Assembly (NCBI GenBank): GCA_947565305.1
Contig: CANOFO010000013.1
Span: forward strand, 1 to 42,302
DNA: 42,302 nucleotides
Reading direction: 5' to 3'
DNA from: an uncultured Lachnospiraceae bacterium
GTDB taxonomy: Bacteria; Bacillota; Clostridia; Lachnospirales; Lachnospiraceae
Shown: piece by piece, positions 5,608-31,274 of the stretch
Position numbering within the stretch: position 1 is the first letter of the stretch
How the letters are laid out: every line of letters begins with the position of its first letter
Notes under the pieces: model-generated
The model's input: the letters and a program-made list of their open reading frames with translations, nothing else
Database searches by the model: none
What the model was told of the DNA's origin: nothing
Position numbers and translations under genes: made by a program

Positions 5608-5649
5608 GGGCATCCCAAAAGCCATGTATTACTGGCTTTTAGGATACCC
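5608..5649 (-). terminator. Rho-independent terminator after the small conserved gene
   Basis: The arms GGGTATCCTAAAAGCC and GGCTTTTGGGATGCCC (minus-strand reading) pair with few mismatches around a ten-base loop, followed by ATTTCTTT. It lies between the stop at 5673 and the radA start. The T-tract is modest. Confidence 0.65.
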
Positions 5650-5672: not shown

Positions 5673-6089
5673 CTATCCAATTTTCTCTATTCTGACTGCA
5701 ACTGGTTTTTCCTCACTCAATTCTACGGAAAGGCTGAGCTTTCCTCCCAGGTTCGTCTTCATTTGTCCGGCATCCACATTATCCACTAAAACCTTATACT
5801 CTGTCTGTTCTTCCAGTTCCAGTGTAATCTGCGCATCTTCCGGTCCCTCCACCTCAAATTCCACTCCGCTGTCGGTTACCATGAAACCATTCACAGCAGT
5901 TCCAGGTACGGATTCATACACAAACATACCATTGCGCTCAAGTTTGGTAATCTCTTTAAAAGTCTTGACCTTATATAAATCTCCGCCAAATTCAAAATTA
6001 TCTGCTTTTGATTTTGAACCCAGCTTGTAATTTCCAAAACTAAGAGCCTCATTATTATCAGTACGGATCAATTCTTCTACTACAGCCAT
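5673..6089 (-). CDS. Small conserved protein of unknown function
   Basis: A 138-residue soluble, acidic protein beginning MAVVEELIR. It has no signal peptide, membrane helix or cysteine-rich motif. Its segments SFGNYKL, GDLYKVKTFKEITKLERNG, VYESVPGTAV and a C-terminal beta-rich half (NLGGKLSLSVEL) look like a family I have seen repeatedly in Lachnospiraceae. Some databases may label it endosialidase-related, but I see nothing that supports an enzymatic role. The start at 6089 follows AAGGAGGA; an upstream in-frame ATG would place the -10 box inside the gene. It has its own extended -10 promoter and a terminator, so it can be expressed alone despite sitting after the FecR operon. The beta-rich tail could be a binding module; this is a guess. 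Confidence 0.85.
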   Translation of the reverse strand: MAVVEELIRTDNNEALSFGNYKLGSKSKADNFEFGGDLYKVKTFKEITKLERNGMFVYESVPGTAVNGFMVTDSGVEFEVEGPEDAQITLELEEQTEYKVLVDNVDAGQMKTNLGGKLSLSVELSEEKPVAVRIEKIG

Positions 6090-6110
6090 TTTTCTTTCCT
6101 CCTTGGGCAT

Positions 6111-6119
6111 ATTATAACA
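6111..6119 (-). promoter_or_regulatory. Extended -10 promoter of the small conserved gene
   Basis: TGT directly followed by TATAAT (minus strand; hexamer at 6111-6116) forms an ideal extended -10. No good -35 is visible, which is acceptable for this promoter class. The leader would be only about 15-20 bases long. Confidence 0.6.
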
Positions 6120-6143
6120 CATCATCCATACGTTCGGCTAGTC

Positions 6144-7466
6144 CTATTTCCACTTAATTGTAGTATCTTTTTTAATCGCAGTCGAAAAATCAAAATCCCA
6201 TGCTCCAGATTTCTTGGGTTTCATTATCGGTTCCTCAGCACACTGTCCATCCTCCACTGTCTGAGTTGCAAACACCTTGCCCTGATACATGAATTTCACT
6301 GTAAATTCTTTGGGCTGCGTAACAACAGGATTATTGCCTGGTGTCGTTCCTGGATTCGTGCCTGACGCTGTCCCCGGGTTCGTTCCTGGATTCGTGCCTG
6401 GCGCTGTCCCTGGGTTCGTTCCCGGTGTCGTCCCTGGGTTCGTTCCCGGTGTCGTCCCTGGGTTCGTTCCCGGCGTTGTTCCCGAACTTCCTGGCGTCCT
6501 TGTATTTCCTGTACTGCCAGTATTCCCTGTGTTACCTGTACTTCCTGTGCTGCCAGAGTTCGTGCTGTCAGAGGAAGAGGTATTATCTATGGCAGAGTTG
6601 TCTTCTGTATCATCTGCTTCATCCTCATACTCACTGTCATCCGATTCACCTGTATCTTCCTCATCTGTATCTTCCTCATAGTCTGCTTCCTCATCTTCCC
6701 AGGCTTCTGCTTCCTCAATCAGCCCGCTCAATTCATCCTGGGAAATCCCGGTAACAGGTGCATCGCGCTGTACAAGTTCCATCAGGAAATTCAGTGCCTG
6801 TAAAGGAAGATTCTCAAAGTCAATCGCTTCCGGTTCCGTCAGGTATGAGCCCGAGGAACTGTCGCCAATACAAGAGGCTTCCTCTCCTGCGTCAACATAA
6901 ATTTCCTCACCTACCGTTCCGTCCGCAAGGAGCGCACTCATAGACACTTTACCTGAGAAGACAGACACCTTGGTGCAAGCTTCCCCTTCCTCATCCGTTG
7001 TCGCTTCTACACGGAAAATCGTACCACGCACAGCCATGACAGAGTTTGGCGAATTGACTTCATACGTGGAATCCGTACTCAGCGGATTTTGAATCTCATT
7101 CGTTATAGCTCCCTGGACCAAATCAATCCTAGTTTTAGAATCCTGGGCATCGCCAGCGCCTTCAATGGCAAGGATACTGTTCTCCTCCACCATCGCATAC
7201 TTATCATCATCCAATTTCAGGCGCATTGAACTGCCATCTGCCACTGTAAGCCTGTCGCCGGACTCCAGATAAAGATCTTCTGCGGCACGGATTTCTCCTG
7301 CGCCCTCACGTTCAATATTTGCCGTCCCTTTCAGTTCATAAATCAGAATAGAGCGATAGAACTCCTCTCCTTTAAAGAAATGGCTGACTGCCAACACCAT
7401 TCCTGTGATAGCCACGACTGCCCCACAAAGGAGTGCAGCTATCTTAATTCCTTTTGATTTCTGCAT
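6144..7466 (-). CDS. Membrane-anchored FecR-domain protein with TPGTNPG repeats
   Basis: A 440-residue protein with one N-terminal membrane segment (about residues 8-28) placing the rest outside the cell. A FecR domain follows (about 40-190): beta-rich, with AVRGTIFRVE and SVFSGKVS typical of the fold. Next are a strongly acidic stretch (about 245-285) and a Ser/Thr/Gly/Pro spacer with repeated TPGTNPG units (about 300-385). The C-terminal ~50-residue domain beginning FTVKFMYQGK resembles the InlB-B/Listeria-Bacteroides repeat fold. FecR domains outside TonB systems are thought to act as extracellular sensors or scaffolds. It is the last gene of the cyclase/HD-GYP operon, 15 bases after the secreted protein, with AGGGGGA before its start. 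No LPXTG signal is present. The domain is clear; the ligand is unknown. Confidence 0.85.
   Translation of the reverse strand: MQKSKGIKIAALLCGAVVAITGMVLAVSHFFKGEEFYRSILIYELKGTANIEREGAGEIRAAEDLYLESGDRLTVADGSSMRLKLDDDKYAMVEENSILAIEGAGDAQDSKTRIDLVQGAITNEIQNPLSTDSTYEVNSPNSVMAVRGTIFRVEATTDEEGEACTKVSVFSGKVSMSALLADGTVGEEIYVDAGEEASCIGDSSSGSYLTEPEAIDFENLPLQALNFLMELVQRDAPVTGISQDELSGLIEEAEAWEDEEADYEEDTDEEDTGESDDSEYEDEADDTEDNSAIDNTSSSDSTNSGSTGSTGNTGNTGSTGNTRTPGSSGTTPGTNPGTTPGTNPGTTPGTNPGTAPGTNPGTNPGTASGTNPGTTPGNNPVVTQPKEFTVKFMYQGKVFATQTVEDGQCAEEPIMKPKKSGAWDFDFSTAIKKDTTIKWK
6333..6485 (-). repeat. Tandem repeats encoding the TPGTNPG spacer
   Basis: Units of about 24 bases (GTCCCTGGGTTCGTTCCCGG type, plus strand) recur across this stretch and encode a Gly/Thr/Pro/Asn spacer in the FecR-domain protein. 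Boundaries are approximate. Such tracts change length easily by slippage, always in frame when whole units move. Confidence 0.8.
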
Positions 7467-7481
7467 GATAATCCCCCTGTC

Positions 7482-9545
7482 CTATTGTTTGCGGAAGTCA
7501 TAGTCTCCATCAGTCGGCACGTAAATTGTCATTCCACCGCGGTATACGGTATCATCCCCTACGACCTTCCATTTGCCTTTGCCGAGTTTGTAAGCAGTTC
7601 CCTTTTTCAGTGTATATACTCCAGTCTTCTTAATTCCATCACGCACCCAGGTCTCATACACCGATACCTCACAGGAAACCTTATTTCCTGCCAGGTCTGT
7701 GGCTGTAATCTTATGTAACCCATTATCCGGCTCAATCGCATACGTGCCATTTTGCAGCTGTACATTTTTGCCATCTATAGTTACCGTATCAAGGTATGTG
7801 TCTCTCACGGTAAATGTGGTCTTCCCATAATATTTATTACCATCTGTTACACCGGAAATAACCGGAACCGTGGTATCAATTATGAGTCCCTGTGAATTTG
7901 CATACGTTGTGTTGCCCGCACGGTCACTGGCTTTGACATATAATACATATCTGCCTTCTGCTCTCACATCCACGGTGTCTGAATTATCTTTCCATTTTCC
8001 AGCAACTGCAGCCTCAATCTCCTGTGCTGTATAATTTCCTTTCCCTGAGAAAAGGTCCCTGTCAGCAAGATAATATTTGATTCCGCTCGTATCTACGTCA
8101 TTCTCTGCATCGGTCACTTTCACTTTAAACTGCTTTGCCTGATTAAATATCATGTTGAAAGATACCTTTCCTGCAGAGGAAGACCATTTCTGGGCATTCC
8201 CATCCAAAGAAATCTCAATCTTCGGCGGCTGCGTAGGCTTAACATCTGAGGATTCTTTTTGGAAGCTTACTTCTACCGTGACGCCATACTCCGGCATCAC
8301 AAAACAGCCGTTCCCATCGCCGCCCATCGGTACAGTTACCGATTCGCCAGAATTTCCGTCTGTCCTGCGGTATGTGATAATCTTCGTCTTATAACCTGCT
8401 GCCGGGTAAGTCTCTACCGTAACTGTCTGTCCCGGGGAAGCTTCACCAATTTCCTTGCCATTAATTTTGGGCGCAAAAGAACCATTTGTCTCCGCTCCTT
8501 TCGCAACCGCATACACTTTTGTTTCGTCTCCTCCCGGCTCATTTCCTCCTGGCTCGTTGCCTCCCGGCTCATTTCCTCCCGCCTCATTATCCTTAATAGT
8601 AACGGAATTTGTCAGGAATGAAATCTGGCTGCCATTCTTTAGATAGCTGATTTTACAGCAATAAGTTCCAGCAGCCCCACTATAAGTCTTAGTGCCTACC
8701 TCGCCGTCTTCTCCCTCATAACGGCTAACCGTAACAGATACCTGTAGGCTGTTGTTGATATTATTCTGCATGTGCAGGCTGCATTCGCCGCCCGCCTTTG
8801 AAGTCACATAAAATGTTTCATTGTTGTGGTCATACGTCTCAAGGTATGCCGCACCGGTAGATTCTTTCAGATATCCACTGAGATAATGCTGCGGGTTCGT
8901 GCCGCCGCTTATATTTTTTACTGTTACCACATCGCCTCTCTGCAAGGTGAGCCGCAACTCCATATATGGCTGTTCATTCCCAGCTATCCATTTTCCGGTT
9001 TCACTGTTATAGGAGGCATTCACGCTGGCAGACACTTTTACCTGCTCAGATTCATCATGGTAATTTCCGTTATCTACTGCCTTGCGCTCACGAAGCCACT
9101 GGTAATAAAAATCGCCTCTGTCCTGCGCAGCCCCATCACCGATTACCACCGTAGGATTCTCCGCTGTTATGGGCAGTGCGGAATATTCCGGTACCCAGTT
9201 GGGCACAAGCACAACATTCTCAGGGGCAAAGTATCCTGTAATATACGTAGGCCATTCACCTTCATTGTCACTTATCCATCTGCTGCAGACCGTATAATTG
9301 GCTTCATCCACTCTCCACAGCCGATATCCATCCTTTTGGTAACCGTCTGGACAATTCTCATTTACGCTCTCCGCATACGTTCCCGTATCATCGGACACAT
9401 ACATGTCTGACGTCACTTTGGCAGAACCAGTATACAGCTTTAGATTTGCATATTCACCGTCCGCATTGACCGCTGCCGGCAAAACAGCAAAGCCGAGTAC
9501 AAATGCCAAACAAAGAGAAATCCATGCTTTCCATTTCTTTTTCAT
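7482..9545 (-). CDS. Large secreted protein with Ig-like domains, unknown function
   Basis: A 687-residue exported protein. It has a signal peptide of about 29 residues (MKKKWKAWIS..., cleavage near VNADG). The first ~310 residues are aromatic-rich and match no family I can name. A GGNEPGGNEP spacer comes at about 325-340, then several beta-sandwich segments. The one near residue 560 contains IDTTVPVISGV and the next DLAGNKVSCEVSV, both typical of bacterial Ig-like repeats. The tail (GVYTLKKGTAYKLGKGKWKV) looks like a small cell-wall or beta-hairpin module. No sortase signal or membrane anchor is present. Its ATG overlaps the stop of the HD-GYP gene in an ATGA, so the two are translationally coupled. 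This implies that the exported protein and the cytoplasmic nucleotide enzyme serve one pathway. Confidence 0.82.
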   Translation of the reverse strand: MKKKWKAWISLCLAFVLGFAVLPAAVNADGEYANLKLYTGSAKVTSDMYVSDDTGTYAESVNENCPDGYQKDGYRLWRVDEANYTVCSRWISDNEGEWPTYITGYFAPENVVLVPNWVPEYSALPITAENPTVVIGDGAAQDRGDFYYQWLRERKAVDNGNYHDESEQVKVSASVNASYNSETGKWIAGNEQPYMELRLTLQRGDVVTVKNISGGTNPQHYLSGYLKESTGAAYLETYDHNNETFYVTSKAGGECSLHMQNNINNSLQVSVTVSRYEGEDGEVGTKTYSGAAGTYCCKISYLKNGSQISFLTNSVTIKDNEAGGNEPGGNEPGGNEPGGDETKVYAVAKGAETNGSFAPKINGKEIGEASPGQTVTVETYPAAGYKTKIITYRRTDGNSGESVTVPMGGDGNGCFVMPEYGVTVEVSFQKESSDVKPTQPPKIEISLDGNAQKWSSSAGKVSFNMIFNQAKQFKVKVTDAENDVDTSGIKYYLADRDLFSGKGNYTAQEIEAAVAGKWKDNSDTVDVRAEGRYVLYVKASDRAGNTTYANSQGLIIDTTVPVISGVTDGNKYYGKTTFTVRDTYLDTVTIDGKNVQLQNGTYAIEPDNGLHKITATDLAGNKVSCEVSVYETWVRDGIKKTGVYTLKKGTAYKLGKGKWKVVGDDTVYRGGMTIYVPTDGDYDFRKQ

Positions 9546-11014
9546 TTTTCCTCATACCTCCTTTTTAATGCCTCAGACAGCCAGCCTACTATCTGGCTGT
9601 CTATCTTTCCTTCCTCTGCCATGCTTCTCAGCATACTCATGGACTTATCATCCGGAATTGCAGTTTTATAAGGGCGGATGGCTGTCAGGGCATCATAGAT
9701 ATCTGCCACAGTCAGAATCCGTGTCTCTAAATCCAGGTCCTCCGCCGTCAATTGCTTTGGATAGCCGGTTCCATTCAGAAATTCATGATGGGATGCCGCC
9801 CATTGGGGCACAATTGCAAAATTCTTATTAAACCGAACCTTGCTGAGAATCTTCTCCGTCACCACCACATGGTTCTTCATTATCTCTCGTTCTTCCAATG
9901 TAAGTGTCCCCTGACGGATGCTCAGGCAGCTTTTTTCCTTATCTGTTATATATTTCGTCACTTCTCCATTTTCTTTTATATGTTTTTTCATAGAAAGCCT
10001 GCAAACTCGCTCATAATTTTCCTTATCCAGAAATCCTACGGTATCAATCTTATGTATGAATTCAAGTTCAGACTTTAAATCTGCAATCTGACGTTCGTAT
10101 TCTTCCTCCGTTATCCTGCCCCGAAGCATATCAACTTCATAAAGCGATTCCAATAGCTTAAAACGCTCTTCTACCTTACTAAGTTCATCACCAAGGCGGG
10201 TTGCCTTATCCATAACGCCCAAAGGAACCACTATCTTGCCGATATCATGAAGCAATGCGGCAAGCAGGAGTTTTTCTTTCCTTTCCTGGTCAAAGAATTC
10301 GTCGCATAACCCTTTCCTATGCAGTTCAGTAATATAATCTGCCAAAATCTGCGAATATTTCGCAACATTGCGCGTATGGGAGGCGTTGTAAGGCGAACGT
10401 TCATCCAGCACAGTCGTAAGCGCTTCCACAAAAGAATAAAGCTGCGCTTTCAATTCTTCCATATAGGTAAGATTCGTCAGTTCAATTGCCGCCATAGAAC
10501 CCAGCGAGCGGATAATGATATGGTACTGCCTGTCAAAGGGAATTACATTCCCTTCCTCATCCATAGCATTAATCAGTTGGAGTACGCCAATCAACTCATT
10601 CTCATTATTCTCCAGCGGAATCACAAGCTGTGATTTCGTATGGTACCCAGTCAGCGCATCGTACTTCTTCGGACCAGAGAAATCAAACCGGTCACTGTCA
10701 TATACATCCGGTATGTTGACAATCTCTCTGTGAATTGCCGTATAAGCACAGACATTTCCCTCTTTCATGGCAACCGGGGGCATATCGGTGATGGCTTCCC
10801 CATCCACGCCCCTGCTGACTCCCATAGAAAGCGTTTTCATTATCTTAAATGTCAGCTGGTCATTTTCATACAGATACAATGTGCTCGCATCGCAATTTGT
10901 AATCTCCATCCCGCTTTCCAGAATGGAGGCCAGGATTTCATTCCTGTCCCTGCCGGTAGACAGATTGATGCCAATATTCAATATTTTTTTGAAATCTTCA
11001 TATTCTAATCGCAT
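9542..11014 (-). CDS. GAF and HD-GYP domain protein, probable cyclic-dinucleotide phosphodiesterase
   Basis: A 490-residue cytoplasmic protein. Residues about 10-185 form a GAF domain (small-molecule sensing). From about 200 an HD-GYP domain starts with HTRNVAKYS and LLHDIGKIV, and carries the metal-site HHE followed by NGTGYP near residue 420. HD-GYP enzymes usually hydrolyse cyclic di-GMP, and some related cGAMP. Between the HD segment and the LEEREIMKNH helix there is an extra, largely charged and helical stretch of about 100 residues not found in the canonical domain. The start at 11014 follows GGAGAG. It is 15 bases after the isomerase gene and overlaps the secreted-protein gene by four bases. 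Whether it acts on cyclic di-GMP here is inference; the adjacent cyclase should make a cyclic mononucleotide. Confidence 0.9.
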   Translation of the reverse strand: MRLEYEDFKKILNIGINLSTGRDRNEILASILESGMEITNCDASTLYLYENDQLTFKIMKTLSMGVSRGVDGEAITDMPPVAMKEGNVCAYTAIHREIVNIPDVYDSDRFDFSGPKKYDALTGYHTKSQLVIPLENNENELIGVLQLINAMDEEGNVIPFDRQYHIIIRSLGSMAAIELTNLTYMEELKAQLYSFVEALTTVLDERSPYNASHTRNVAKYSQILADYITELHRKGLCDEFFDQERKEKLLLAALLHDIGKIVVPLGVMDKATRLGDELSKVEERFKLLESLYEVDMLRGRITEEEYERQIADLKSELEFIHKIDTVGFLDKENYERVCRLSMKKHIKENGEVTKYITDKEKSCLSIRQGTLTLEEREIMKNHVVVTEKILSKVRFNKNFAIVPQWAASHHEFLNGTGYPKQLTAEDLDLETRILTVADIYDALTAIRPYKTAIPDDKSMSMLRSMAEEGKIDSQIVGWLSEALKRRYEEK

Positions 11015-11029
11015 CTAATCTCTCCTTAT

Positions 11030-11821
11030 CTATCCCCTGTAAAACGGATACATTTCATGCTGCCTCATATACTCCAGTGACTTCTGCTGACCATCGCAGC
11101 TGCTTACTTCTACCAGCACACTTGCCCTTATCTGGTATTCTTTCATCAGCCTGTCATACTCCTGCCAGTCAATCTTCCCTTCTCCTATGGGCTGATGCAA
11201 GTCATTGCGAAGGTCGTTGTCATTGAGATGCATATGCAGGATATATGGAGCCAGCGTCTTTACCCACTCCTGCTGCGGACAGCCTGTAAGCGCTGCATGG
11301 GCATAATCCAGACAGACGCCAAAATTCCCCGTTCCTCTCATAGCCTCCGCCAATTCTGCCATCACATCAGGAGCCTCATCAAACATATTCTCCATATAAA
11401 TCTGCTGTCCGGGATAGGCCTCTGCAAGTTCCGTGAAAAACTGCAGATTCGTTTGCTGCCAAAGTTTTAAGTATCCCTCTGTACGAAATCCGGCAAGCCT
11501 TCCGGTGTGGAACACCACACCTTTCAAGCCCATCCGTTTTGCAATCTCCATCGACTGGCGCACCCTCAGAATAGATGCATCCCGAATCAACGGGTCACTG
11601 CTGTGGATTGTCACATCAAAAAATGCTCCATGCATGGTATCTTCGGAAAAGTCACTGCGGTATTTGGCATAAAATTCAATAATTTCTTCCTGTTTCCTTG
11701 GGTCATCTAAAACTTCCGGCAAATAAAAATCATTATATTCAAAAGCACATCCATACTCTCCAACAAGACGGACAGACCTTTCTATCTCCGTCCTGTCCGG
11801 AATAATATATCCTCTGCTCAT
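11030..11821 (-). CDS. Sugar phosphate isomerase/epimerase-like TIM-barrel protein
   Basis: A 263-residue member of the xylose-isomerase-like/AP endonuclease 2 superfamily. Likely metal ligands are Glu in YMEN, Asp and His in CLDYAHA, His in HMHLND and Glu in LVEVS. The order and spacing fit a divalent-metal barrel acting on a sugar, sugar phosphate or related substrate. It has no signal peptide. Its ATG directly follows the stop codon of the cyclase gene (TAAATG on the minus strand), indicating coupled translation. A sugar isomerase inside a signalling operon is unusual; it could make or remove the ligand sensed by the operon, but nothing in the sequence fixes its substrate. Confidence 0.82.
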   Translation of the reverse strand: MSRGYIIPDRTEIERSVRLVGEYGCAFEYNDFYLPEVLDDPRKQEEIIEFYAKYRSDFSEDTMHGAFFDVTIHSSDPLIRDASILRVRQSMEIAKRMGLKGVVFHTGRLAGFRTEGYLKLWQQTNLQFFTELAEAYPGQQIYMENMFDEAPDVMAELAEAMRGTGNFGVCLDYAHAALTGCPQQEWVKTLAPYILHMHLNDNDLRNDLHQPIGEGKIDWQEYDRLMKEYQIRASVLVEVSSCDGQQKSLEYMRQHEMYPFYRG

Positions 11822-13624
11822 TTACTTTTTCACCTCGTCTAACTGATATACAAATACCCCCTTGCTCTTCCCCTTCAAAGGAATCTCGCCAATCGGCGTT
11901 ACGCTTACCCGGTCTTTCACCGCCTCATACACTTCTTCGCTAATCAATATCTGCCCCCTCCCGGCATTGCTCTCCAAACGCGCCGCCGTATTGACGGTAT
12001 CTCCGATTGCTGTGTAATCCATACGGAACTCACAGCCAATATTTCCCACGACTGCGTTTCCGCAATTCACGCCGATTCCAAAAGCAACACTCTTGCCAAA
12101 GCGTTTTTCAAATTTATCGGCAAGTTCGTCCGCACCCGCCCTCATATCCCATGCCGTACAGACGGCACGGAAAATATAATCATCCAGTTCAAAAGGCGCG
12201 TTAAACACCGCCATTGTGGCATCTCCCACAAACTTATCAAGCGTCCCTCCATTGTCAAATATGGACTTTGTGGTCAAACTTAAATATTCATTTAAGATTT
12301 CCACTACTTCTTCCGGCTGCATACTCTCCGACATGGTCGTGAAGCCGCGGATATCCACAAACAACACAGCGATATGGCGGTTTTCCCCGCCCAGCACCAG
12401 TTCAAAATCCCTGTCTTTGCTAATCTTATCTACAACCTGTGGCGCTACATATTGCTTAAATACATTTACCACACGCCGTCTGCGCATAATTTCTGTAAGG
12501 TAACCCTGGATTACCCGCGCCAGGAAAATCAGCGCAAGTACAATCGGAAGCAGGATAACGGGAACGATACTGCCCTGTTGGTACATGATTCTGGCAAATA
12601 CGACATTCAGTACTGCTGCCAGAACAAACAGGATACCAGTCAGCAGTATCTTTGCTTTGCGCGCTGCCAGAAAGAACAGTCCGCACAAAATACCTGCTGC
12701 AACTGCATAGAGAATGGGGGAAAAAGGCGTCTGTGTCTTCCCCTCTAAAAGCGCTTCAATAATATTGGCATGGATTTCCACCCCATACATCTGGCTGTTA
12801 TGCGAAATCGCAGGGGTGTAAGAATCCTGCATCCCCACGGCATAAGCGCCTACCAGTACAGCCGCCCCCTGAAAAATTCCGACATCAATGCTGCCAGAAA
12901 GCACATCAGCCATAGAAACTACATTGTATCCCCCCGGTTTTCCGGAATATGTAAAATAAAAACGGTTGCTTCTGCCATAAGTAGCCGGGAATACGGCTTC
13001 CTTTCCCTGGCTTTCCTGAAACATTTCATAAACCCGGGAAGAGAGGCTGTATGCCCGCTCTCCCTCATAATCAATATACGCCATTGCCTGACGCACATAC
13101 CCATCCATGTCCACGGTCGTATTGGCATACCCGGTAATTGCGCTGTCACGAAGGCTCTCATACGGTTCAATCACATAATCCACATGATATGGGTTGTAAG
13201 TGACTTTCCCATTCTCATCTGTTTCCGGCATTTCCTTGAAAGAAAAACTCTGCGCTACCACAACATTGCCTGCCAGCTTACAAGCATCCGCAAAATGTTT
13301 ATCCGCTTTCTCATCTGCCTGCTCACTGTAGATGACATCGAATCCGATGACAGCCGGTTTCTTTGTTGCATCTACATTTAACATTTCTACCAATCGCGCA
13401 GGAATATCTCTGCTCCAGGTATTGACCGGACCATACTGCTCCAAAGTCTTGTCATCAATGCCAATGATATATATTTTCTTATTCGTCACCGATTCCCGCT
13501 GGTTCAGCCTGTCTGATATGCCGATGTCCCACAGCCCGGCTGCGCCAAAATAGTGGAACACCACAGACACCAAAACAATCGCTATCGTAACGATTGCTGT
13601 CTTTGCCCTGCCTAAACTTTTCAT
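11822..13624 (-). CDS. CHASE2-domain class III adenylate/guanylate cyclase
   Basis: A 600-residue membrane receptor enzyme. An N-terminal helix precedes an extracellular CHASE2 domain (about residues 40-300; IIGIDDKTLEQYG and AVIGFDVIYSE are characteristic). Three membrane helices follow (about 315-390), then a cytoplasmic class III cyclase domain. Catalytic features are all visible: metal aspartates in FVDIRGF and VGDATMAVF, substrate residues in DKFVGD and DYTAIGD, and NTAARLE with the transition-state Asn and Arg. The Lys plus Asp pattern favours ATP over GTP as substrate, so cAMP is the likely product. The ATG at 13624 is preceded by GAGAGG; an in-frame GTG five codons upstream is a weaker alternative. 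It is the first gene of the five-gene operon, 75 bases after clpC. Confidence 0.92.
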   Translation of the reverse strand: MKSLGRAKTAIVTIAIVLVSVVFHYFGAAGLWDIGISDRLNQRESVTNKKIYIIGIDDKTLEQYGPVNTWSRDIPARLVEMLNVDATKKPAVIGFDVIYSEQADEKADKHFADACKLAGNVVVAQSFSFKEMPETDENGKVTYNPYHVDYVIEPYESLRDSAITGYANTTVDMDGYVRQAMAYIDYEGERAYSLSSRVYEMFQESQGKEAVFPATYGRSNRFYFTYSGKPGGYNVVSMADVLSGSIDVGIFQGAAVLVGAYAVGMQDSYTPAISHNSQMYGVEIHANIIEALLEGKTQTPFSPILYAVAAGILCGLFFLAARKAKILLTGILFVLAAVLNVVFARIMYQQGSIVPVILLPIVLALIFLARVIQGYLTEIMRRRRVVNVFKQYVAPQVVDKISKDRDFELVLGGENRHIAVLFVDIRGFTTMSESMQPEEVVEILNEYLSLTTKSIFDNGGTLDKFVGDATMAVFNAPFELDDYIFRAVCTAWDMRAGADELADKFEKRFGKSVAFGIGVNCGNAVVGNIGCEFRMDYTAIGDTVNTAARLESNAGRGQILISEEVYEAVKDRVSVTPIGEIPLKGKSKGVFVYQLDEVKK

Positions 13625-13699
13625 TCTACCTCTCTCCACTCTGTATCATAAGTACAACGGATATTACTATAAGATACTTAGTTTATGATGTACTAGCGC

Positions 13700-16148: not shown

Positions 16149-17765
16149 CTATAAATCCTCCAGATCTATTACCTCAAAATCTTCGTCCGGCTCTATAACT
16201 GGCTCCGGCTTTCTCTCCGCTTTGGGCTCTGCCTTTCTCTCTGCCTTCGGCTCTGCTTTCCTCTCCGACCGCTGTTCCTGTCTGCGGTCTTTTTTCTCCT
16301 GTTTTCTATCTGCTTTTGCCTCATGCCTGGTCTGGGAGTTTTGCTGCTCCTCCATGCCAATCGCCGGTATCACTTTCGTCTGCTGTTTGAGGATGGCTTT
16401 CGGTACGGTATCATCCTCCCACAAATCATCCTCTCTGTCGCCCATTGTTCTGCCATGCCCACTTTCTCCACGGCGTGACTTCCTGACGCTCTTAACCTGC
16501 GCTCTGACTTTTTCCGTCAGTTCATCATAATCAAGCTCATCTTCCAGTTCATCCTCATCCGTTTTCCTGCCGCGCAGCAGCAGATTCACTATCACTACAA
16601 CCAATACGGCGATGATAAATACCAGTACCGCTGTTGTCTTTCTGGAAGTATCCTTCTGCGCATTATATTGCGTCTCCATGTCCGTATATGCTTTCTGCAG
16701 ACTCTGCATCTCAGCGCTGGGCTCACCATCGCTATCTGAAGGCTGCGAATCAGGCGCAGATGGTTCTGACGCTGCCTGTACCGGCGTATACCGCTGGAAT
16801 GTCGCTTCCAGGGCATCATATTGATACCATCCCTTATTCCCATAACTGCTGACGCCATAAACGAGGGAAAATTCCTGGCTATCCGAAGCCCCATCTTCCC
16901 CTCCTTGTGCAATGTCTGATGTCTGTGAACCCTGTGCCTTAACAAACACTGGCACATCCGCAAGTTCTCCCAGCGTCTGCACAGTCTGCGTATATTCCTG
17001 CGAAAGCCCGCCTTCTGCCGGGGGATCGAGGATAATCATATATTTTTCCCCATCAAGGGAAATCTTGCGAAAAGGACAGAAGCTGTTACTTGCCTCCTCA
17101 TATACGGCAAGCGTATTTTTCACCTCAGTACTGGGCGTTGTCAGATACACCAACGTCAATTCCCCTTTTTCAAAAGAGAGGCCTTCCACCTGCTGTCCCT
17201 GACAGGTGACTGTCGTCTTGGTAAAATCCGCTGGAACGACATCTGCTGGAATTGTCGGCGCCAGATTAAAGGGATGCCCATTTATGGTAATTCCCTGCGG
17301 ATTTCCCTCCTCTGGCTGCTGTCCCTCTGCCTCCCCTGTCTGCGGTTCATCTGCTGCCGGTTCCTGGGCAGCTGTCTCTCCGCCCTCCTGCCGCGTCACC
17401 ACAATCTTATATGTGGCAGTTGTTCCATTCTGTGCCTTGACCACGATACTGACCAGATTCTCCCCATCCTGCAGATCCGTGTTGCCAGACACCGATTCTA
17501 TAGTTGCCGTCTCGTTAGAGGTCTTGGCGCTGACCTCTACGCTGGTGACATCTTTCCCCACAGTTGCAGTATAATCAACAACATTATACTGAAATTCCGG
17601 AGATAAGGTTCCCGGTGAAATACTTAAGGAGGATAAACTATTATCCCCGGACTGTACCGTAGCAAACACCTGGGAGCTATCTATATTTATCGGCATAAAT
17701 TGGAAAATACCTATCAATAACAGCCATGATAACAGTATGCCCATAATCTGCTTTATTCTTCTCAT
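16149..17765 (-). CDS. Single-pass membrane protein with extracellular cadherin-like domain and charged cytoplasmic tail
   Basis: A 538-residue protein of no known function. An N-terminal signal or anchor helix (about residues 6-25) is followed by a cadherin-like beta-sandwich domain (about 38-128; LSSLSISPGTLSPEF and TYKIVVTRQ are typical). A Glu/Gln-rich spacer and a second beta-rich extracellular region (about 155-300) follow. After a helical segment, a strong membrane helix (about 378-400) leads to a cytoplasmic tail. The tail is basic first, then has repeated KAEPKAER units, and ends in an acidic stretch (EPDEDFEVIDLEDL). The ATG at 17765 follows AAGGTGA. An upstream in-frame extension would overlap the promoter. 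It is first in the operon with clpC, one base apart, suggesting a link between an extracellular sensor and the unfoldase; that link is inference. Confidence 0.82.
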   Translation of the reverse strand: MRRIKQIMGILLSWLLLIGIFQFMPINIDSSQVFATVQSGDNSLSSLSISPGTLSPEFQYNVVDYTATVGKDVTSVEVSAKTSNETATIESVSGNTDLQDGENLVSIVVKAQNGTTATYKIVVTRQEGGETAAQEPAADEPQTGEAEGQQPEEGNPQGITINGHPFNLAPTIPADVVPADFTKTTVTCQGQQVEGLSFEKGELTLVYLTTPSTEVKNTLAVYEEASNSFCPFRKISLDGEKYMIILDPPAEGGLSQEYTQTVQTLGELADVPVFVKAQGSQTSDIAQGGEDGASDSQEFSLVYGVSSYGNKGWYQYDALEATFQRYTPVQAASEPSAPDSQPSDSDGEPSAEMQSLQKAYTDMETQYNAQKDTSRKTTAVLVFIIAVLVVVIVNLLLRGRKTDEDELEDELDYDELTEKVRAQVKSVRKSRRGESGHGRTMGDREDDLWEDDTVPKAILKQQTKVIPAIGMEEQQNSQTRHEAKADRKQEKKDRRQEQRSERKAEPKAERKAEPKAERKPEPVIEPDEDFEVIDLEDL

Positions 17766-17804
17766 ATGTATCACCTTTCTTTTTTTCCGATTCTTACCAT
17801 TACT

Positions 17805-17834
17805 ATTATAATTTTCCAACTCCCTGATTGTCAA
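17805..17834 (-). promoter_or_regulatory. Promoter of the membrane-protein/clpC operon
   Basis: Minus strand: TTGACA at 17829-17834, an 18-base spacer and TATAAT at 17805-17810, both perfect consensus hexamers. The leader to the ATG at 17765 is about 35 bases. No CtsR-type tandem heptad operator is evident around it. Confidence 0.8.
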
Positions 17835-23003: not shown

Positions 23004-26000
23004 TTAGATTTTTTTCATCTTTGCTTTTTTACCCATGCCCCGCGCCTTAAAAATGCTCTGGTAAGATTTCAGCTTACTCTTAGGAACCTTAAACGTTGCT
23101 TTCGCATGAGTTCCCTTGAACGCTTTGCTGCCGACGGATGATTTTTTCAGTTTCGTTGTCTTAACGGTAATGGTTTTCAGCTTCTTACAGCCATAGAATG
23201 ACTGCTTGCCAATCTTTCTCACCTTGGCAGGAATCGTAATCTTCGTCAACGATGTGCATTTGCTGAATGCATTCGCCCCTATCGCCGTTACGTTCTTGCC
23301 TATGGAGACCGTTTTCAGCTTCTTACAGCCAGAAAATGCATTCGCTCCGATAGTCGTAACATTATTTCCGATTATGACCTTCGTAACCTTGCTGTTGCCA
23401 TACAGCGCTTTATCGGCAACAGACGTTACTGTGAATGTCGCGCCGTTCACCGTAATTTCCGCCGGAATCTTTACCGTCTTTGCCGACTTAACAGATGGCT
23501 TAACGTATGACACCGTTCCGGTCACCTTCCCATTAGCAGTCCCTACAGCCGTAACCTGATACTCTGCCCCGGAAGCAATATCTTTGACCACGCTTCCGTT
23601 CTCTAGCGTCCCGGAGACCGGCAATTTCGCCAAAGTTTCCATTCTGGCCTTGCTGCAGACGGTACAGGTAAACGTCTTAATCCCTGTCTCACTGGCAGTC
23701 GGCTGTTTGGTGATTACGCCTTGATTCCACCGATGCCCCAGCGCTGGGATTACCTTGCCCGATTCAAGAACCTCATCGCATCTTGTGCAATATTTCTCTC
23801 CAGTATTGCCCGCCTGTTCACAGGAGGCTGGTTTTTCTCCACGGATTTGCTTATCATGCCCCAGCGCAGCTGCTGCCTCTCCCTGAGAAATCTTCTGCCC
23901 GCATTCCATACCATAAATTTCTATATTTCCTGCTTCCGTACAAGTCGCCGTGTTGCGCTCAGCAACCTCTTCCCCTTCATGGTTACAATACACCTCTATG
24001 CAATCCGCCACTACTACATTGCCGTTGCCCTCACCCTTTTTCCCGGTTACGCGGACTTTTAGCATATGCATGCCTGGCTCTAATTGCCCGGACTCATACA
24101 GCAGCACATGATTCTCTTTTTCTGCCTGATAAAGGCTGACTTCCTCTTCCTCCCCATCGTCAACAGAAAACGCCGCATAGCCAAGGTTGGCTGCTTTCTG
24201 GGCATAATATTTCACGGATGTGCCGTTAAATTTGAAGGAAAGGACTGCTCCTTGCGTATCCGACCAATGATTGTCATCTTCATAACATCCCACAGACGTC
24301 TTTGCTTTCTCATAGGTCCAGCCTTGCGAAAAGTCAAACTCCAGATTCCCATTTCCTGTAACCGCATCATTCACCAAAGCGTATGCTTTGGGAATTGCTT
24401 TGCCGCTCTCAAGAAGTTCTTCACATCTCTTACAGTAAGTATCTCCGGTATAACCATCCTCTGTACTGCTTGCTTCCTTATGGTTGCGGATTTCAGGATT
24501 ATGCCCAAGCGCCGAAATCACATCCCCATCAGAAATCGTTTTCTGGCAGTCATTGCAATAGAGCGCCCCTGCATAACCGTCTTCCGTACACGTTGCCGCC
24601 TTGCTTTTTACCTCGGTATGTTCATGCATGCAGACATCGCCGCTGCCGGTCGTTGGCAGTGTCAATGTCATCGTTTCCCCACAGCCTTCGCGCATACAGG
24701 TAAATGTCTTAATTCCTGTTTCACTGTCAGTCGGCTGCTTTGTCACCACGCCTTCATCCCATTGGTGTCCCAGCTTGGAAATTTCCTCGCCCTGGCTGGT
24801 AACCTCCTCACATCTCGTACAATATGTCTGTCCTGTATAACCTGACTCCGTACAGGTTGCCGCAACATTGCGCGTTTCCTCCGAATGCCCCAGTGCGGGA
24901 ATCACTTCCCCTTCAACAAGAACTGCTTCACAGACTTCACAGTACGTCTCCCCACTGTTACCTGCCTCTGTACAGGTTGCCGCCTTGGCGCCCCGGACTT
25001 TCTCAGTGTGACCCAATGCAGGAATTTCTTGCCCTTGCCTGATGATCTCCTCACATCTCGTACAATACGTCTGCCCCGTATACCCCGCCTCTGTACAGGT
25101 TGCCGCCTTATCCTCCTTCGCCCGCTCTTCATGCCCCAACGGCTCTCCATTTTTTACGCCATCGGAAATCTTCTGCCCGCACAGCTTTCCATATGTCTCC
25201 CCTGTGCGCGCCGCTTCGGTACAGGTTGCCGGCAAATCACGGCTTTCCTTCTCTTCACCCTTATGGTTGCAGTACACCTCTATCCGGTCTGCCACCACCA
25301 CAAAATCACTGCCGCCGCCATTTTTACCGGTCACCCGGACCTTCAGCGTATGCGTACCCGGCTGCAAATCCTGCGACTGATAAATCAACACCTGATTTTC
25401 TGTTTTCGCCTGATACATGTTTACCTCTTCTTCATCCCCACCGTCAATAGAGAATGCGGCATAACCGAGATTCATTGCTTTTTGACCGAAATACTTCACG
25501 GATGTTCCTGTAAACTTAAACTCAAAAGCTGCATCCACAGTTTTTGACCAATGGTTATCTCCCTCATAACAGTCTGCTGAGGAAGCTGCTTTCTCATACG
25601 TCCACCCATCGGTAAAATTGAACTGCTGATTTTCAGTTCCCGTTACTGCATTATTTACTACGGCACAGGCTCTTGGAATCACCTCGCCTTTTTCCTTGAC
25701 CTCATCACACCTCTTACAGCAGGTATCGCCCATGTAACCGTCCTCGTCAGCGCTCGCCTCTTTCGCATTGCGCACTTCCCACTCATGCCCCAGCGCCTCA
25801 ATTTCTGTTCCGGCGGAAATCATTTTCTGGCAGTCATTGCAGTAGAGCGCTCCGCTATAACCAGCTTCCGTGCAGGTCGCCGCCTGATTCCTCGTCTCTG
25901 TGTTCTCATGCATACAGCCTTCTTCTATTTCTACTATCATCGTCTCCTTACAGACGGTACAGGTTAGGGTCTTCTCCCCTTTCTCGGTTGCTGTCGGCGG

Positions 26001-27110
26001 CTTTGTCACCACCCCGGCATCCCAGGAATGCCCATTTGCCGCAATCACTTCCCCATCAGAAACTTCCTGCCCGCAATACTGGTAATAGGTATCGCCGCTA
26101 TAGCCATCCTCCGTACAGGTTGCTGCCTTTTCATCTTTCAAGACCGTCCCTTCTCCTTCGTGGCTGCAGCACACCTCCATGCGGTCTGCTACCAGCACGC
26201 CGCTGATAAGTTCCACCTTCATAGTATGTAGGCCAGGCGCCAGGGAAACATATTTTCTTGAATCAAACGCCAGTCCCTGGCTTGCTATCCCAGTATTCAG
26301 GGAAAGATTATCCACTACCTGATTTCCATCTATGGACACTCTAATATGTCCGCTGCCGCTCTCCGTATAATATTTCGCGTAAGTGCCGTTAAACTTTAAC
26401 TCCAGAAAATCTCCGGCTGTTTCTGTCCAGTGGACATCTTTCTTATAGGAAGCGTTCTTCTCCTTAGCGGCATACGCATGCGTACAGCCCTGGGGCTGCG
26501 CGGGGCCTTCATAATGCCAGGTACCGCCATAATTAACTTGCAATGGCTCTGTCCCCTCGTCCGCATCGTTTACTACCGCATAGGGGTAGGAGCAGGAAAC
26601 CTCTACCATATCTACAACAACAAGCCCATTTGCCGTGATGGTCAGCACATGTGTCCCAAACTCCAGAAGCCCGGTATCATAGAGCAATACACTCTCCGTC
26701 TTAGCAGAAGAATAAAAATTGACATTTTCCGGCTCGCTCCCATCAAGGGAAAAGTCCGCCGTCTTAAAATCGTAATTTGTCCTCGTATAATACTTTAAGT
26801 TTGTGCCCACAAAAGTAATGGTGCAGGTAGCGCCGGCAGTGAGGGTATAATGGTCTGTATGGTTGTAGCATCCAGCGCTGCCATTGTTATTTTGGTCTTC
26901 CCCGACCCAGCCATTGCTGTATTCTATCTGGCAGTATTCTTTTCCTTCATACTCCGTATCTGCAGTGTTGTAATCATCAAAGTGATACACCTCATCATAT
27001 GGCTGCTCATTCTGGGCATACACCCGGGTTACGTTTCCGACATAAAGATTCGTGCATACCAAAAACAGACACAACAAAATACTGATTTGTTTTTTCCATT
27101 TTTCCTTCAT
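23004..27110 (-). CDS. Giant secreted repeat protein: galactose-binding-like modules, Cys-rich repeats and LRR tail
   Basis: A 1368-residue exported protein with a signal peptide of ~33 residues (MKEKWKKQISILL..., cleavage after VYAQ). It has four beta-sandwich modules resembling carbohydrate-binding, galactose-binding-fold domains (about 38-172, 175-315, 482-617, 908-1042; GDNHWS and AAFSIDGG recur). They are separated by about a dozen ~40-residue repeats of the type ATCTEAGYTGxxYCxxC...ALGH. A beta-rich linker (about 1172-1230) precedes BspA-like leucine-rich repeats to the end. There is no LPXTG signal, and the C-terminus is basic. The ATG follows GGGAGGA. It is 37 bases downstream of the GH2 gene and shares its terminal block. 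A role in binding glycans or mucin with the enzyme is plausible but not shown. Confidence 0.9.
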   Translation of the reverse strand: MKEKWKKQISILLCLFLVCTNLYVGNVTRVYAQNEQPYDEVYHFDDYNTADTEYEGKEYCQIEYSNGWVGEDQNNNGSAGCYNHTDHYTLTAGATCTITFVGTNLKYYTRTNYDFKTADFSLDGSEPENVNFYSSAKTESVLLYDTGLLEFGTHVLTITANGLVVVDMVEVSCSYPYAVVNDADEGTEPLQVNYGGTWHYEGPAQPQGCTHAYAAKEKNASYKKDVHWTETAGDFLELKFNGTYAKYYTESGSGHIRVSIDGNQVVDNLSLNTGIASQGLAFDSRKYVSLAPGLHTMKVELISGVLVADRMEVCCSHEGEGTVLKDEKAATCTEDGYSGDTYYQYCGQEVSDGEVIAANGHSWDAGVVTKPPTATEKGEKTLTCTVCKETMIVEIEEGCMHENTETRNQAATCTEAGYSGALYCNDCQKMISAGTEIEALGHEWEVRNAKEASADEDGYMGDTCCKRCDEVKEKGEVIPRACAVVNNAVTGTENQQFNFTDGWTYEKAASSADCYEGDNHWSKTVDAAFEFKFTGTSVKYFGQKAMNLGYAAFSIDGGDEEEVNMYQAKTENQVLIYQSQDLQPGTHTLKVRVTGKNGGGSDFVVVADRIEVYCNHKGEEKESRDLPATCTEAARTGETYGKLCGQKISDGVKNGEPLGHEERAKEDKAATCTEAGYTGQTYCTRCEEIIRQGQEIPALGHTEKVRGAKAATCTEAGNSGETYCEVCEAVLVEGEVIPALGHSEETRNVAATCTESGYTGQTYCTRCEEVTSQGEEISKLGHQWDEGVVTKQPTDSETGIKTFTCMREGCGETMTLTLPTTGSGDVCMHEHTEVKSKAATCTEDGYAGALYCNDCQKTISDGDVISALGHNPEIRNHKEASSTEDGYTGDTYCKRCEELLESGKAIPKAYALVNDAVTGNGNLEFDFSQGWTYEKAKTSVGCYEDDNHWSDTQGAVLSFKFNGTSVKYYAQKAANLGYAAFSVDDGEEEEVSLYQAEKENHVLLYESGQLEPGMHMLKVRVTGKKGEGNGNVVVADCIEVYCNHEGEEVAERNTATCTEAGNIEIYGMECGQKISQGEAAAALGHDKQIRGEKPASCEQAGNTGEKYCTRCDEVLESGKVIPALGHRWNQGVITKQPTASETGIKTFTCTVCSKARMETLAKLPVSGTLENGSVVKDIASGAEYQVTAVGTANGKVTGTVSYVKPSVKSAKTVKIPAEITVNGATFTVTSVADKALYGNSKVTKVIIGNNVTTIGANAFSGCKKLKTVSIGKNVTAIGANAFSKCTSLTKITIPAKVRKIGKQSFYGCKKLKTITVKTTKLKKSSVGSKAFKGTHAKATFKVPKSKLKSYQSIFKARGMGKKAKMKKI

Positions 27111-27147
27111 ACTCTCTACATCCTCCCTTTGAATCCTAGTTTCTTAT

Positions 27148-31239: not shown

Positions 31240-31274
31240 ATCGCCCATTCCTCCTTTATAATTTTTATTTATTT

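What the first reader, a model, noticed from the sequence alone, without database searches (positions are those of the whole stretch)
6144..13624. Five-gene signalling operon: CHASE2 cyclase, sugar isomerase, GAF/HD-GYP, secreted protein and FecR protein
Genes are packed with 15-base gaps, direct abutment (TAAATG) or ATGA overlap, so they should be made together. CHASE2 is an extracellular sensor; FecR is an extracellular domain often found near CHASE2 genes. A cytoplasmic cyclase and a phosphodiesterase-type HD-GYP give opposing or cross-talking nucleotide signals. The translationally coupled secreted 687-residue protein has no named family over most of its length and could be the ligand, effector or co-receptor. 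The TIM-barrel isomerase adds a metabolic link. cAMP signalling is rare in anaerobic Firmicutes. This is my best candidate for an undescribed system.
Basis: partly seen in the sequence, partly recalled or inferred. Interest (0 to 1): 0.78.

Follow-up and report, generated by a model that had tools for sequence, protein, structure and literature searches.

The report
Surface-sensing cAMP/c-di-GMP relay operon
Five neighbouring genes in a gut bacterium form a conserved signalling kit that probably turns a signal at the cell surface into one internal messenger and passes it on to a second, and its supposed sugar enzyme looks instead like a new kind of messenger-destroying enzyme.

Summary
In detail: five same-strand genes (CHASE2-cyclase, AP_endonuc_2 TIM barrel, GAF-HD-GYP, secreted 687-aa protein, FecR) are packed as described. 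They form a conserved module. Of the 80 best loci fetched with the TIM barrel, 57 hold cyclase, TIM barrel, HD-GYP and FecR together, and 53 hold a relative of the secreted protein. In 246 genomes of the order, this HD-GYP, FecR and the PDE-like enzymes occur almost only where the CHASE2-cyclase occurs. The 'isomerase' label is not supported: the barrel keeps all nine endonuclease-IV metal ligands (78 of 78; 0 of 11 other family members) and fits phosphodiesterase models best. It takes the place of an MBL-fold hydrolase found in other lineages. Some loci without HD-GYP carry a cyclic-nucleotide-binding protein instead, never both. I read it as: surface signal, FecR/secreted protein, CHASE2 adenylate cyclase, cAMP, then GAF-HD-GYP changing c-di-GMP, with the TIM barrel as a new type of cAMP phosphodiesterase. 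A CHASE2-cyclase/phosphodiesterase/FecR/TPR cluster is published for Campylobacterota (PMC9239204), so this is a new variant of a known kind.

The parts
11822..13639 (-). CHASE2-class III nucleotide cyclase (605 aa from GTG 13639; ATG at 13624)
   Evidence: Pfam CHASE2 and Guanylate_cyc over cut-off; catalytic columns D429 K469 D473 T543 N550 R554 invariant in 69 of 69 homologues; the only CHASE2 match in its genome
11030..11821 (-). AP_endonuc_2 TIM barrel, predicted tri-metal phosphodiesterase (not an isomerase)
   Evidence: Pfam 92 bits; nine endonuclease-IV metal-ligand columns present in 78 of 78 homologues, and in 8 of 8 barrels and 20 of 20 endonuclease IV but 0 of 11 other AP_endonuc_2 proteins; CbiR model matched by 50 of 50 members, below its cut-off for the window protein
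9542..11014 (-). GAF-HD-GYP protein with about 90 extra residues after the HD motif; proposed cAMP-gated c-di-GMP phosphodiesterase (output)
   Evidence: Pfam GAF, HD, HD_5; H213 HD256-257 K260 H382 HH409-410 GYP417-419 invariant in 72 of 72; PDB kin PmGH 4mcw and 3'3'-cGAMP phosphodiesterase 5z7c
7482..9545 (-). Secreted 687-aa protein with Ig-like stretches and a conserved C-terminal segment of about 60 aa
   Evidence: No Pfam match over cut-off; relatives in 53 of 80 loci, conserved over about residues 430-687; the C-terminal segment occurs in 3 of 246 genomes of the order, all TIM-type cyclase genomes
6144..7466 (-). FecR-domain protein with an N-terminal hydrophobic segment, a low-complexity linker and a conserved C-terminal segment
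   Evidence: Pfam FecR 42 bits; hydrophobic N-terminus and linker read; conserved C-terminal columns; relatives in 64 of 80 loci; FecR found in 34 of 246 genomes, 31 of them with the CHASE2-cyclase
5608..5649 (-). Terminator-like hairpin between the 150-aa gene and radA; possible end of the transcription unit
   Evidence: 17-pair stem; consensus match only
5673..6125 (-). 150-aa gene downstream; in the directon but not part of the conserved module
   Evidence: In the neighbour clustering of the loci with a TIM barrel it appears in only 2 loci besides the window

Best explanation
A dedicated surface-to-cytoplasm signalling module. The secreted Ig-type protein and the FecR protein sit outside the membrane and control the extracellular CHASE2 domain (inferred from gene pairing). 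CHASE2 gates a class III adenylate cyclase that makes cAMP (residues shown, product inferred). The GAF-HD-GYP protein is the receptor and output: its GAF domain binds cAMP and its HD-GYP domain then hydrolyses c-di-GMP, so a surface signal is relayed from cAMP to c-di-GMP (inferred). The endonuclease-IV-like TIM barrel is a metal phosphodiesterase that destroys the cAMP and resets the module, filling the slot that an unrelated MBL-fold hydrolase fills in other families (slot exchange shown, substrate inferred).
For: Gene linkage: orders SFCTH 27, CTHSF 12, CTHF 8, CTHFS 6 of 80 loci; TIM then HD-GYP as neighbours 66 times, 61 of them with a gap of 50 bases or less (S secreted, F FecR, C cyclase, T TIM, H HD-GYP). 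Co-occurrence in 246 genomes: cyclase in 37; HD-GYP in 28 (26 with cyclase), MBL in 31 (30), FecR in 34 (31), TIM of 250 bits or more in 5 (5). PDE slot: among 37 cyclase genomes 30 MBL, 5 TIM, 2 neither, 0 both; one TIM/MBL change on the cyclase tree against at least 19 in 200 shuffles. Output slot: of 113 cyclase loci 86 have HD-GYP, 10 a cNMP-binding protein, 17 neither, 0 both; the cNMP proteins include CNB-GGDEF (L025) and CNB-SpoIIE with RsbW-like and STAS genes (L035); an EAL protein neighbours the cyclase in L023. CHASE2 is fused to this HD-GYP in L034 and L068. The window genome has 11 GGDEF matches but only one marginal cNMP-binding match. Precedent for a cAMP-gated c-di-GMP phosphodiesterase: Bd1971, PMC6717892 (abstract and outline seen).
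Against: No biochemistry. The GAF test did not discriminate: the window GAF hits cyclic-nucleotide GAFs in the PDB (17 of 18 hits), but a second, different GAF (L131) does too (19 of 21); that GAF lies 16 bases from a module gene, so it is not a clean control, and no cleaner one was found among the later loci. The NKxnFx3DE motif (recalled) is incomplete (N and F kept, K mostly A). The insertion of about 90 residues next to the HD active site may alter substrate. The window TIM barrel matches no NCBIfam model above its cut-off. 17 of 113 cyclase loci have neither output type (7 of these lie within about 1.2 kb of a contig end; L028/L029 have another gene there, Fic by Pfam in L028). Only 7 of 29 genomes of the genus, own included, have the cyclase. 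Counts over related genomes are not independent; with the two weak TIM hits counted, the TIM-cyclase association falls to p = 0.001.
Confidence: 0.5

Rival explanations
1. Conserved module, but HD-GYP is an independent c-di-GMP branch co-expressed with the cyclase; cAMP acts elsewhere and the two messengers are set in parallel.
For: Active-site residues of both enzymes are intact; GAF specificity unproven.
Against: cNMP-binding proteins replace HD-GYP in 10 of 113 loci and were never found with it; only one marginal cNMP-binding match in the window genome (assembly about 83% complete); CHASE2-HD-GYP fusions exist.
Confidence: 0.2
2. The GAF-HD-GYP is the cAMP-degrading feedback enzyme (as in GAF-regulated mammalian PDEs) and the TIM barrel acts on something else, for example pGpG or another cyclic phosphate.
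For: Domain layout resembles GAF-PDE enzymes; the HD-GYP subfamily has an unusual insertion.
Against: HD-GYP motif residues are complete; the TIM barrel is near the cyclase also where no HD-GYP was found (L028, L029, L132, L135, L137, L141), and MBL or TIM occurs beside HD-GYP.
Confidence: 0.15
3. The TIM barrel is a sugar isomerase or epimerase that links the module to metabolism.
For: Pfam AP_endonuc_2 also covers isomerases; up to 6 of 50 members match any one epimerase or isomerase model, weakly.
Against: CbiR phosphodiesterase model matched by 50 of 50 and deoxyribonuclease IV models by 47 and 42 of 50; nine-ligand set in 8 of 8 barrels and 0 of 11 other family members.
Confidence: 0.06
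4. An anti-phage (Pycsar-like) cyclase system.
For: PADLOC PycC models hit the cyclase domain (best 1.2e-27).
Against: The hits cover only the cyclase part; the protein has a CHASE2 sensor; in the other five proteins scanned the only PADLOC hits are weak Cas3 HD matches to the HD-GYP protein; partners are signalling enzymes across the order.
Confidence: 0.02

Closest known systems
CHASE2 adenylate cyclase / cAMP phosphodiesterase / FecR / TPR cluster of Campylobacterota (PMC9239204, section 9 read)
   Same: CHASE2 cyclase, a phosphodiesterase gene and a FecR-domain protein in one cluster
   Different: No TPR gene among the five; PDE slot held by an endonuclease-IV-like barrel; GAF-HD-GYP output and a module-specific secreted protein; Gram-positive envelope
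BiofilmReg operon of Burkholderia (response regulator, LysM-FecR, CHASE2 histidine kinase; PMC5192318, passages seen)
   Same: FecR protein paired with a CHASE2 sensor
   Different: Histidine kinase output; no cyclic-nucleotide enzyme in the passages seen
Bd1971 cAMP-sensing EAL phosphodiesterase (PMC6717892, abstract and outline seen)
   Same: Works like the proposed output: cAMP controls c-di-GMP hydrolysis
   Different: CRP-type sensor and EAL enzyme, not GAF and HD-GYP; not a homologous architecture
CbiR cobamide phosphodiesterase / endonuclease IV (PMC7733943, passages seen)
   Same: AP_endonuc_2 TIM barrel; nine endonuclease-IV metal-ligand columns kept; best NCBIfam match
   Different: Scores below CbiR and nfo cut-offs; linked to cyclases, not cobamide or DNA repair genes
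PmGH (4mcw), GAF-HD-GYP of Persephonella marina (name and organism recalled)
   Same: Same domain order; best PDB match of the HD-GYP profile
   Different: Lacks the insertion of about 90 residues; the window protein has Y209 where PmGH has a glutamate (alignment; role of that glutamate recalled)
Sinorhizobium meliloti CyaD1/CyaD2/CyaK CHASE2 cyclases (PMC13001267 and PMC5498481, passages seen)
   Same: CHASE2 cyclases make cAMP in response to an external protein signal; FecR and TPR proteins are among the Clr targets
   Different: Signal enters by an outer-membrane barrel (NsrA) and acts through the CRP-type regulator Clr; its FecR protein was reported as not needed for signal perception

Membership tests
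Class III adenylate cyclase | Two metal Asp, purine Lys and Thr/Asp, transition-state Asn and Arg | tested here: met
   D429 D473 K469 T543 N550 R554 in 69 of 69 homologues; roles of residues recalled
Class III adenylate cyclase | cAMP formation | not testable with these tools
   needs assay
Campylobacterota CHASE2-cyclase cluster (PMC9239204) | CHASE2 cyclase next to FecR protein | tested here: met
   FecR relatives in 64 of 80 loci
Campylobacterota CHASE2-cyclase cluster (PMC9239204) | cAMP phosphodiesterase in the cluster | tested here: inconclusive
   A predicted phosphodiesterase (TIM or MBL) is there; substrate unknown; fold of the published enzyme not stated in the section read
Campylobacterota CHASE2-cyclase cluster (PMC9239204) | TPR-domain protein | tested here: not met
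   No TPR match in the five proteins
HD-GYP phosphodiesterase | HD...H...HH...GYP metal and motif residues | tested here: met
   72 of 72; Pfam HD_5 over cut-off
HD-GYP phosphodiesterase | c-di-GMP hydrolysis | not testable with these tools
   needs assay
cAMP-binding GAF | Closer to cyclic-nucleotide GAFs than other GAFs are; NKxnFx3DE motif | tested here: inconclusive
   17 of 18 PDB hits are cNMP-system GAFs, but another GAF gives 19 of 21; motif partial
Endonuclease IV / CbiR type metal phosphodiesterases | Nine metal-ligand positions of endonuclease IV | tested here: met
   78 of 78; 20 of 20 endonuclease IV have them, 0 of 11 other AP_endonuc_2 proteins (two of the 11 may be wrong frames); ligand roles recalled
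CbiR (NF041277) | Score over curated cut-off 105 | tested here: not met
   50.1 bits
Deoxyribonuclease IV (TIGR00587) | Score over curated cut-off 129.65 | tested here: not met
   35.3 bits; the genome has a separate nfo (L164, 305 bits)
Sugar isomerase/epimerase models of NCBIfam | Score over a curated cut-off | tested here: not met
   best 20 bits
Pycsar defence | PycC cyclase with a Pycsar effector | tested here: not met
   cyclase-domain hit only, no effector hit in the six proteins scanned

The most novel reading that the evidence does not exclude
The TIM barrel is the first endonuclease-IV-fold cAMP phosphodiesterase, a new enzyme class, embedded in a gut-bacterial relay in which a dedicated secreted protein and FecR control a CHASE2 adenylate cyclase and cAMP gates an HD-GYP c-di-GMP phosphodiesterase; both the destroying enzyme and the receiving protein are exchangeable cassettes.
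Probability: 0.4. Interest if true: 0.78.

Novelty: new variant of a known kind. Interest (0 to 1): 0.62.

Why it matters
It gives gut Lachnospiraceae and their order a recognisable cAMP pathway with proposed sensor, maker, destroyer and receiver in one operon, and predicts direct cAMP-to-c-di-GMP relay. If the barrel destroys cAMP it adds a fold that I know of in no described cAMP phosphodiesterase (recall; one search listed no paper). What CHASE2 and FecR sense becomes testable, because the secreted partner carries a C-terminal segment that in the order surveyed was found only beside this module (3 of 246 genomes). Cassette exchange (MBL or TIM; HD-GYP, CNB, CNB-GGDEF, CNB-SpoIIE) lets the unknown parts be read from the known ones.

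Tried and rejected
Sugar-isomerase reading: rejected by profile and ligand tests. Pycsar defence: rejected. GAF specificity by PDB hits: looked convincing until another GAF gave nearly the same list; I looked for a GAF outside module loci among the later loci and found none, so it stays inconclusive. clpC, radA and the 150-aa gene as module members: rejected; clpC and the 150-aa gene cluster with genes of only 4 and 2 other loci, and radA was seen beside the operon in two congeners. Solved-structure kin for the FecR and secreted-protein profiles: none at E 0.01. Literature: ten searches of open-licence PMC papers; judged by their listings, none reports a Clostridia or Lachnospiraceae CHASE2-cyclase/FecR operon or an endonuclease-IV-fold cAMP phosphodiesterase.

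Limits of the counts. The 80 loci are the best 80 of 313, so they favour near relatives. Four named loci carry a cyclase identical to one already fetched without a name (L075/L022, L076/L020, L077/L021, L150/L036): they are not independent of the query alignments, and L036/L150 is counted twice among the 113 loci and in the tree and distance test. One search left out L020-L022 and the two CHASE2-HD-GYP fusions. The tree test used 96 labelled of 111 leaves. My ORF picker missed some genes (for example the MBL gene in L025 and the TIM gene in L114 and L151), so 'absent' counts may be too high.
Full report
What is there. Five same-strand genes run 13639/13624 to 6144 in the order CHASE2-cyclase, AP_endonuc_2 TIM barrel, GAF-HD-GYP, secreted 687-aa protein, FecR protein. 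The genes are under purifying selection (Ka/Ks 0.05-0.17 against two congeners; synonymous sites near saturation). Upstream lie clpC and a 561-aa gene with a 12-of-12 promoter-like match at 17834-17805; downstream a 150-aa gene and then a terminator-like hairpin before radA (consensus matches only). The window is contig 13 of a 3.07-Mb assembly in 202 contigs, about 83% complete. Its nearest named kin are uncultured Lachnospiraceae.

Conservation of the set. A profile of the TIM barrel was scanned over the genome-contig collection (one genome for each of 84,980 species); 313 stretches encode a relative and the best 80 loci were kept. Of these 80, 57 hold cyclase, TIM barrel, HD-GYP and FecR; 6 cyclase-TIM-HD-GYP; 6 TIM-HD-GYP; 4 cyclase-FecR-TIM; 2 FecR-HD-GYP-TIM; 1 cyclase-FecR-HD-GYP; 1 cyclase-TIM; 2 TIM alone; 1 FecR alone (some loci are cut by contig ends). 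Relatives of the secreted protein are in 53 of 80 and of FecR in 64 of 80 (BLAST). The commonest orders are secreted-FecR-cyclase-TIM-HDGYP (27) and, as in the window, cyclase-TIM-HDGYP-secreted-FecR (12). Among neighbours within 5.5 kb of the TIM barrel the FecR and secreted families are by far the largest clusters (61 and 53 loci besides the window; the next has 9), so the five genes travel as a unit while flanking genes differ.

Co-occurrence. In one set of 246 genomes of the order, the CHASE2-cyclase is in 37. HD-GYP of this subfamily is in 28, 26 of them with the cyclase; FecR in 34, 31 with it; the MBL-fold hydrolase seen beside distant cyclases in 31, 30 with it; the TIM barrel at 250 bits or more in 5, all with it, and two weaker hits (122 and 108 bits) without it. 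Fisher p values run from 6e-5 (0.001 if the weak TIM hits are counted) to 1e-30, but relatedness makes them optimistic. 37 of 41 cyclase loci have at least one partner within 5 kb. Cyclase and HD-GYP distances agree (r = 0.97 over 84 loci), which shared ancestry of the genomes also produces. Within the window's genus 7 of 29 genomes have the cyclase.

The PDE slot. Among the 37 cyclase genomes 30 have the MBL hydrolase, 5 the TIM barrel, none both, 2 neither. On a cyclase tree (111 leaves, 96 with a TIM or MBL label) the label changes once, against at least 19 times in 200 shuffles. The MBL enzymes (three scanned) match Lactamase_B_2 and, in the PDB, RNase Z best, with PhnP weaker. All 50 TIM barrels scanned match the CbiR phosphodiesterase model and 47 and 42 match deoxyribonuclease IV models; no epimerase or isomerase model matches more than 6. 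The window protein is below every curated cut-off, so it looks like its own subfamily. All nine metal-ligand columns of endonuclease IV are present in 78 of 78 barrels. In a joint alignment they are present in 8 of 8 barrels and 20 of 20 endonuclease IV proteins but in 0 of 11 other AP_endonuc_2 proteins (L186 and L188 may be wrong frames, L189 and L193 keep eight of nine). Of those 11, seven were scanned against NCBIfam: six match isomerase, epimerase or IolE models below cut-off and L189 matches none. The window genome has a separate endonuclease IV (L164). Hence 'isomerase' is not supported; 'metal phosphodiesterase' is. That its substrate is cAMP rests on the slot exchange and on its lying near the cyclase even where no HD-GYP was found.

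The output slot. Of 113 cyclase loci examined (L020-L022 and the fusions left out; one locus, L036/L150, counted twice) 86 have the HD-GYP within 5.5 kb, 10 a cyclic-nucleotide-binding protein, none both, 17 neither. Those confirmed by Pfam are stand-alone domains (L042, L050, L054, L141; also L073 and L151, where no cyclase was picked), CNB-GGDEF (L025), CNB-SpoIIE beside RsbW-like and STAS genes (L035) and CNB-DUF2225 (L045, L053). One further cyclase neighbours an EAL protein and a REC-GGDEF-EAL protein (L023). In L034 and L068 CHASE2 is fused directly to this HD-GYP next to FecR. So the place near the cyclase is often held by something that should read a cyclic nucleotide or that turns over c-di-GMP. 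This makes the GAF-HD-GYP the likely receiver. The window genome has 11 GGDEF matches and one marginal cNMP-binding match. A direct test of the GAF by PDB similarity was not discriminating.

Outside the cell. The FecR protein has an N-terminal hydrophobic segment followed by the FecR domain. The secreted protein is variable in its N-terminal half but conserved over about residues 430-687; in 37 of 53 relatives the match runs to the very last residue. The last 60 residues as a profile occur in 3 of 246 genomes of the order, four places in all, each within 5 kb of a CHASE2-cyclase of a TIM-type genome; the other two TIM genomes show no match. Some other cyclase loci carry different secreted partners, for example NHL-repeat proteins (L008, L048, L062). 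What is sensed is unknown.

Known kin. PMC9239204 (section 9 read) describes in Campylobacterota a cluster of CHASE2 adenylate cyclase, cAMP phosphodiesterase, FecR and TPR proteins; PMC5192318 (passages) a FecR/CHASE2-kinase operon; PMC6717892 (abstract, outline) a cAMP-gated c-di-GMP phosphodiesterase; PMC5932348 (passages) cites a cAMP-dependent diguanylate cyclase in Leptospira. The present operon is a new variant of the first kind: TPR is absent, the PDE slot holds a TIM barrel, and HD-GYP and the secreted protein are present. Judged by their listings, my searches of open-licence papers showed no report of it in Clostridia.

Verdict. The module is real and conserved (confidence about 0.95). 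The full relay as stated, including cAMP hydrolysis by the TIM barrel and cAMP gating of HD-GYP, is about 0.5.

Noticed in passing
L035:3290-4489, 9619-10065, 10084-10404: In G064 the CHASE2-cyclase locus carries CNB-SpoIIE, an RsbW-like ATPase and a STAS protein: a possible cAMP-controlled partner switch.
   Followed up: partly
L135:1005-6816, L132:536-4440, L131:14821-15327: GAF-ABC ATPase proteins (L132, L135) and a lone GAF gene (L131) lie in or beside module loci; in L135 the GAF-ABC gene overlaps the cyclase start and a large ORF that looks like a membrane protein sits between cyclase and TIM barrel. L132 and L135 have no HD-GYP, so this could be another output.
   Followed up: partly
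L028:11380-12261 and L029:11577-12458: A gene (Fic by Pfam in L028; the L029 copy not scanned) overlaps the start of the cyclase gene in two congeners without HD-GYP near; a possible alternative partner.
   Followed up: partly
L073:9257-12231: An MBL hydrolase and a stand-alone cNMP-binding gene sit beside a flagellin gene in a genome where no CHASE2-cyclase was found; genes that look like flagellin by eye also recur in four TIM loci.
   Followed up: no
L045:5354-6640 and L053:5816-7225: CNB fused to DUF2225 near CHASE2-cyclases: DUF2225 may be a cAMP-controlled output of unknown function.
   Followed up: no
window 23004-31248: Two adjacent secreted proteins of 1368 and 1366 aa share repeated modules and similar C-terminal repeats; the second begins like a glycoside hydrolase family 2 enzyme (read by eye).
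   Followed up: no
window 16149-17834: A 561-aa protein with a cadherin-like domain lies directly upstream of clpC; its listed start (TTG 17834) falls on a 12/12 promoter-like match, so the true start is probably downstream.
   Followed up: no
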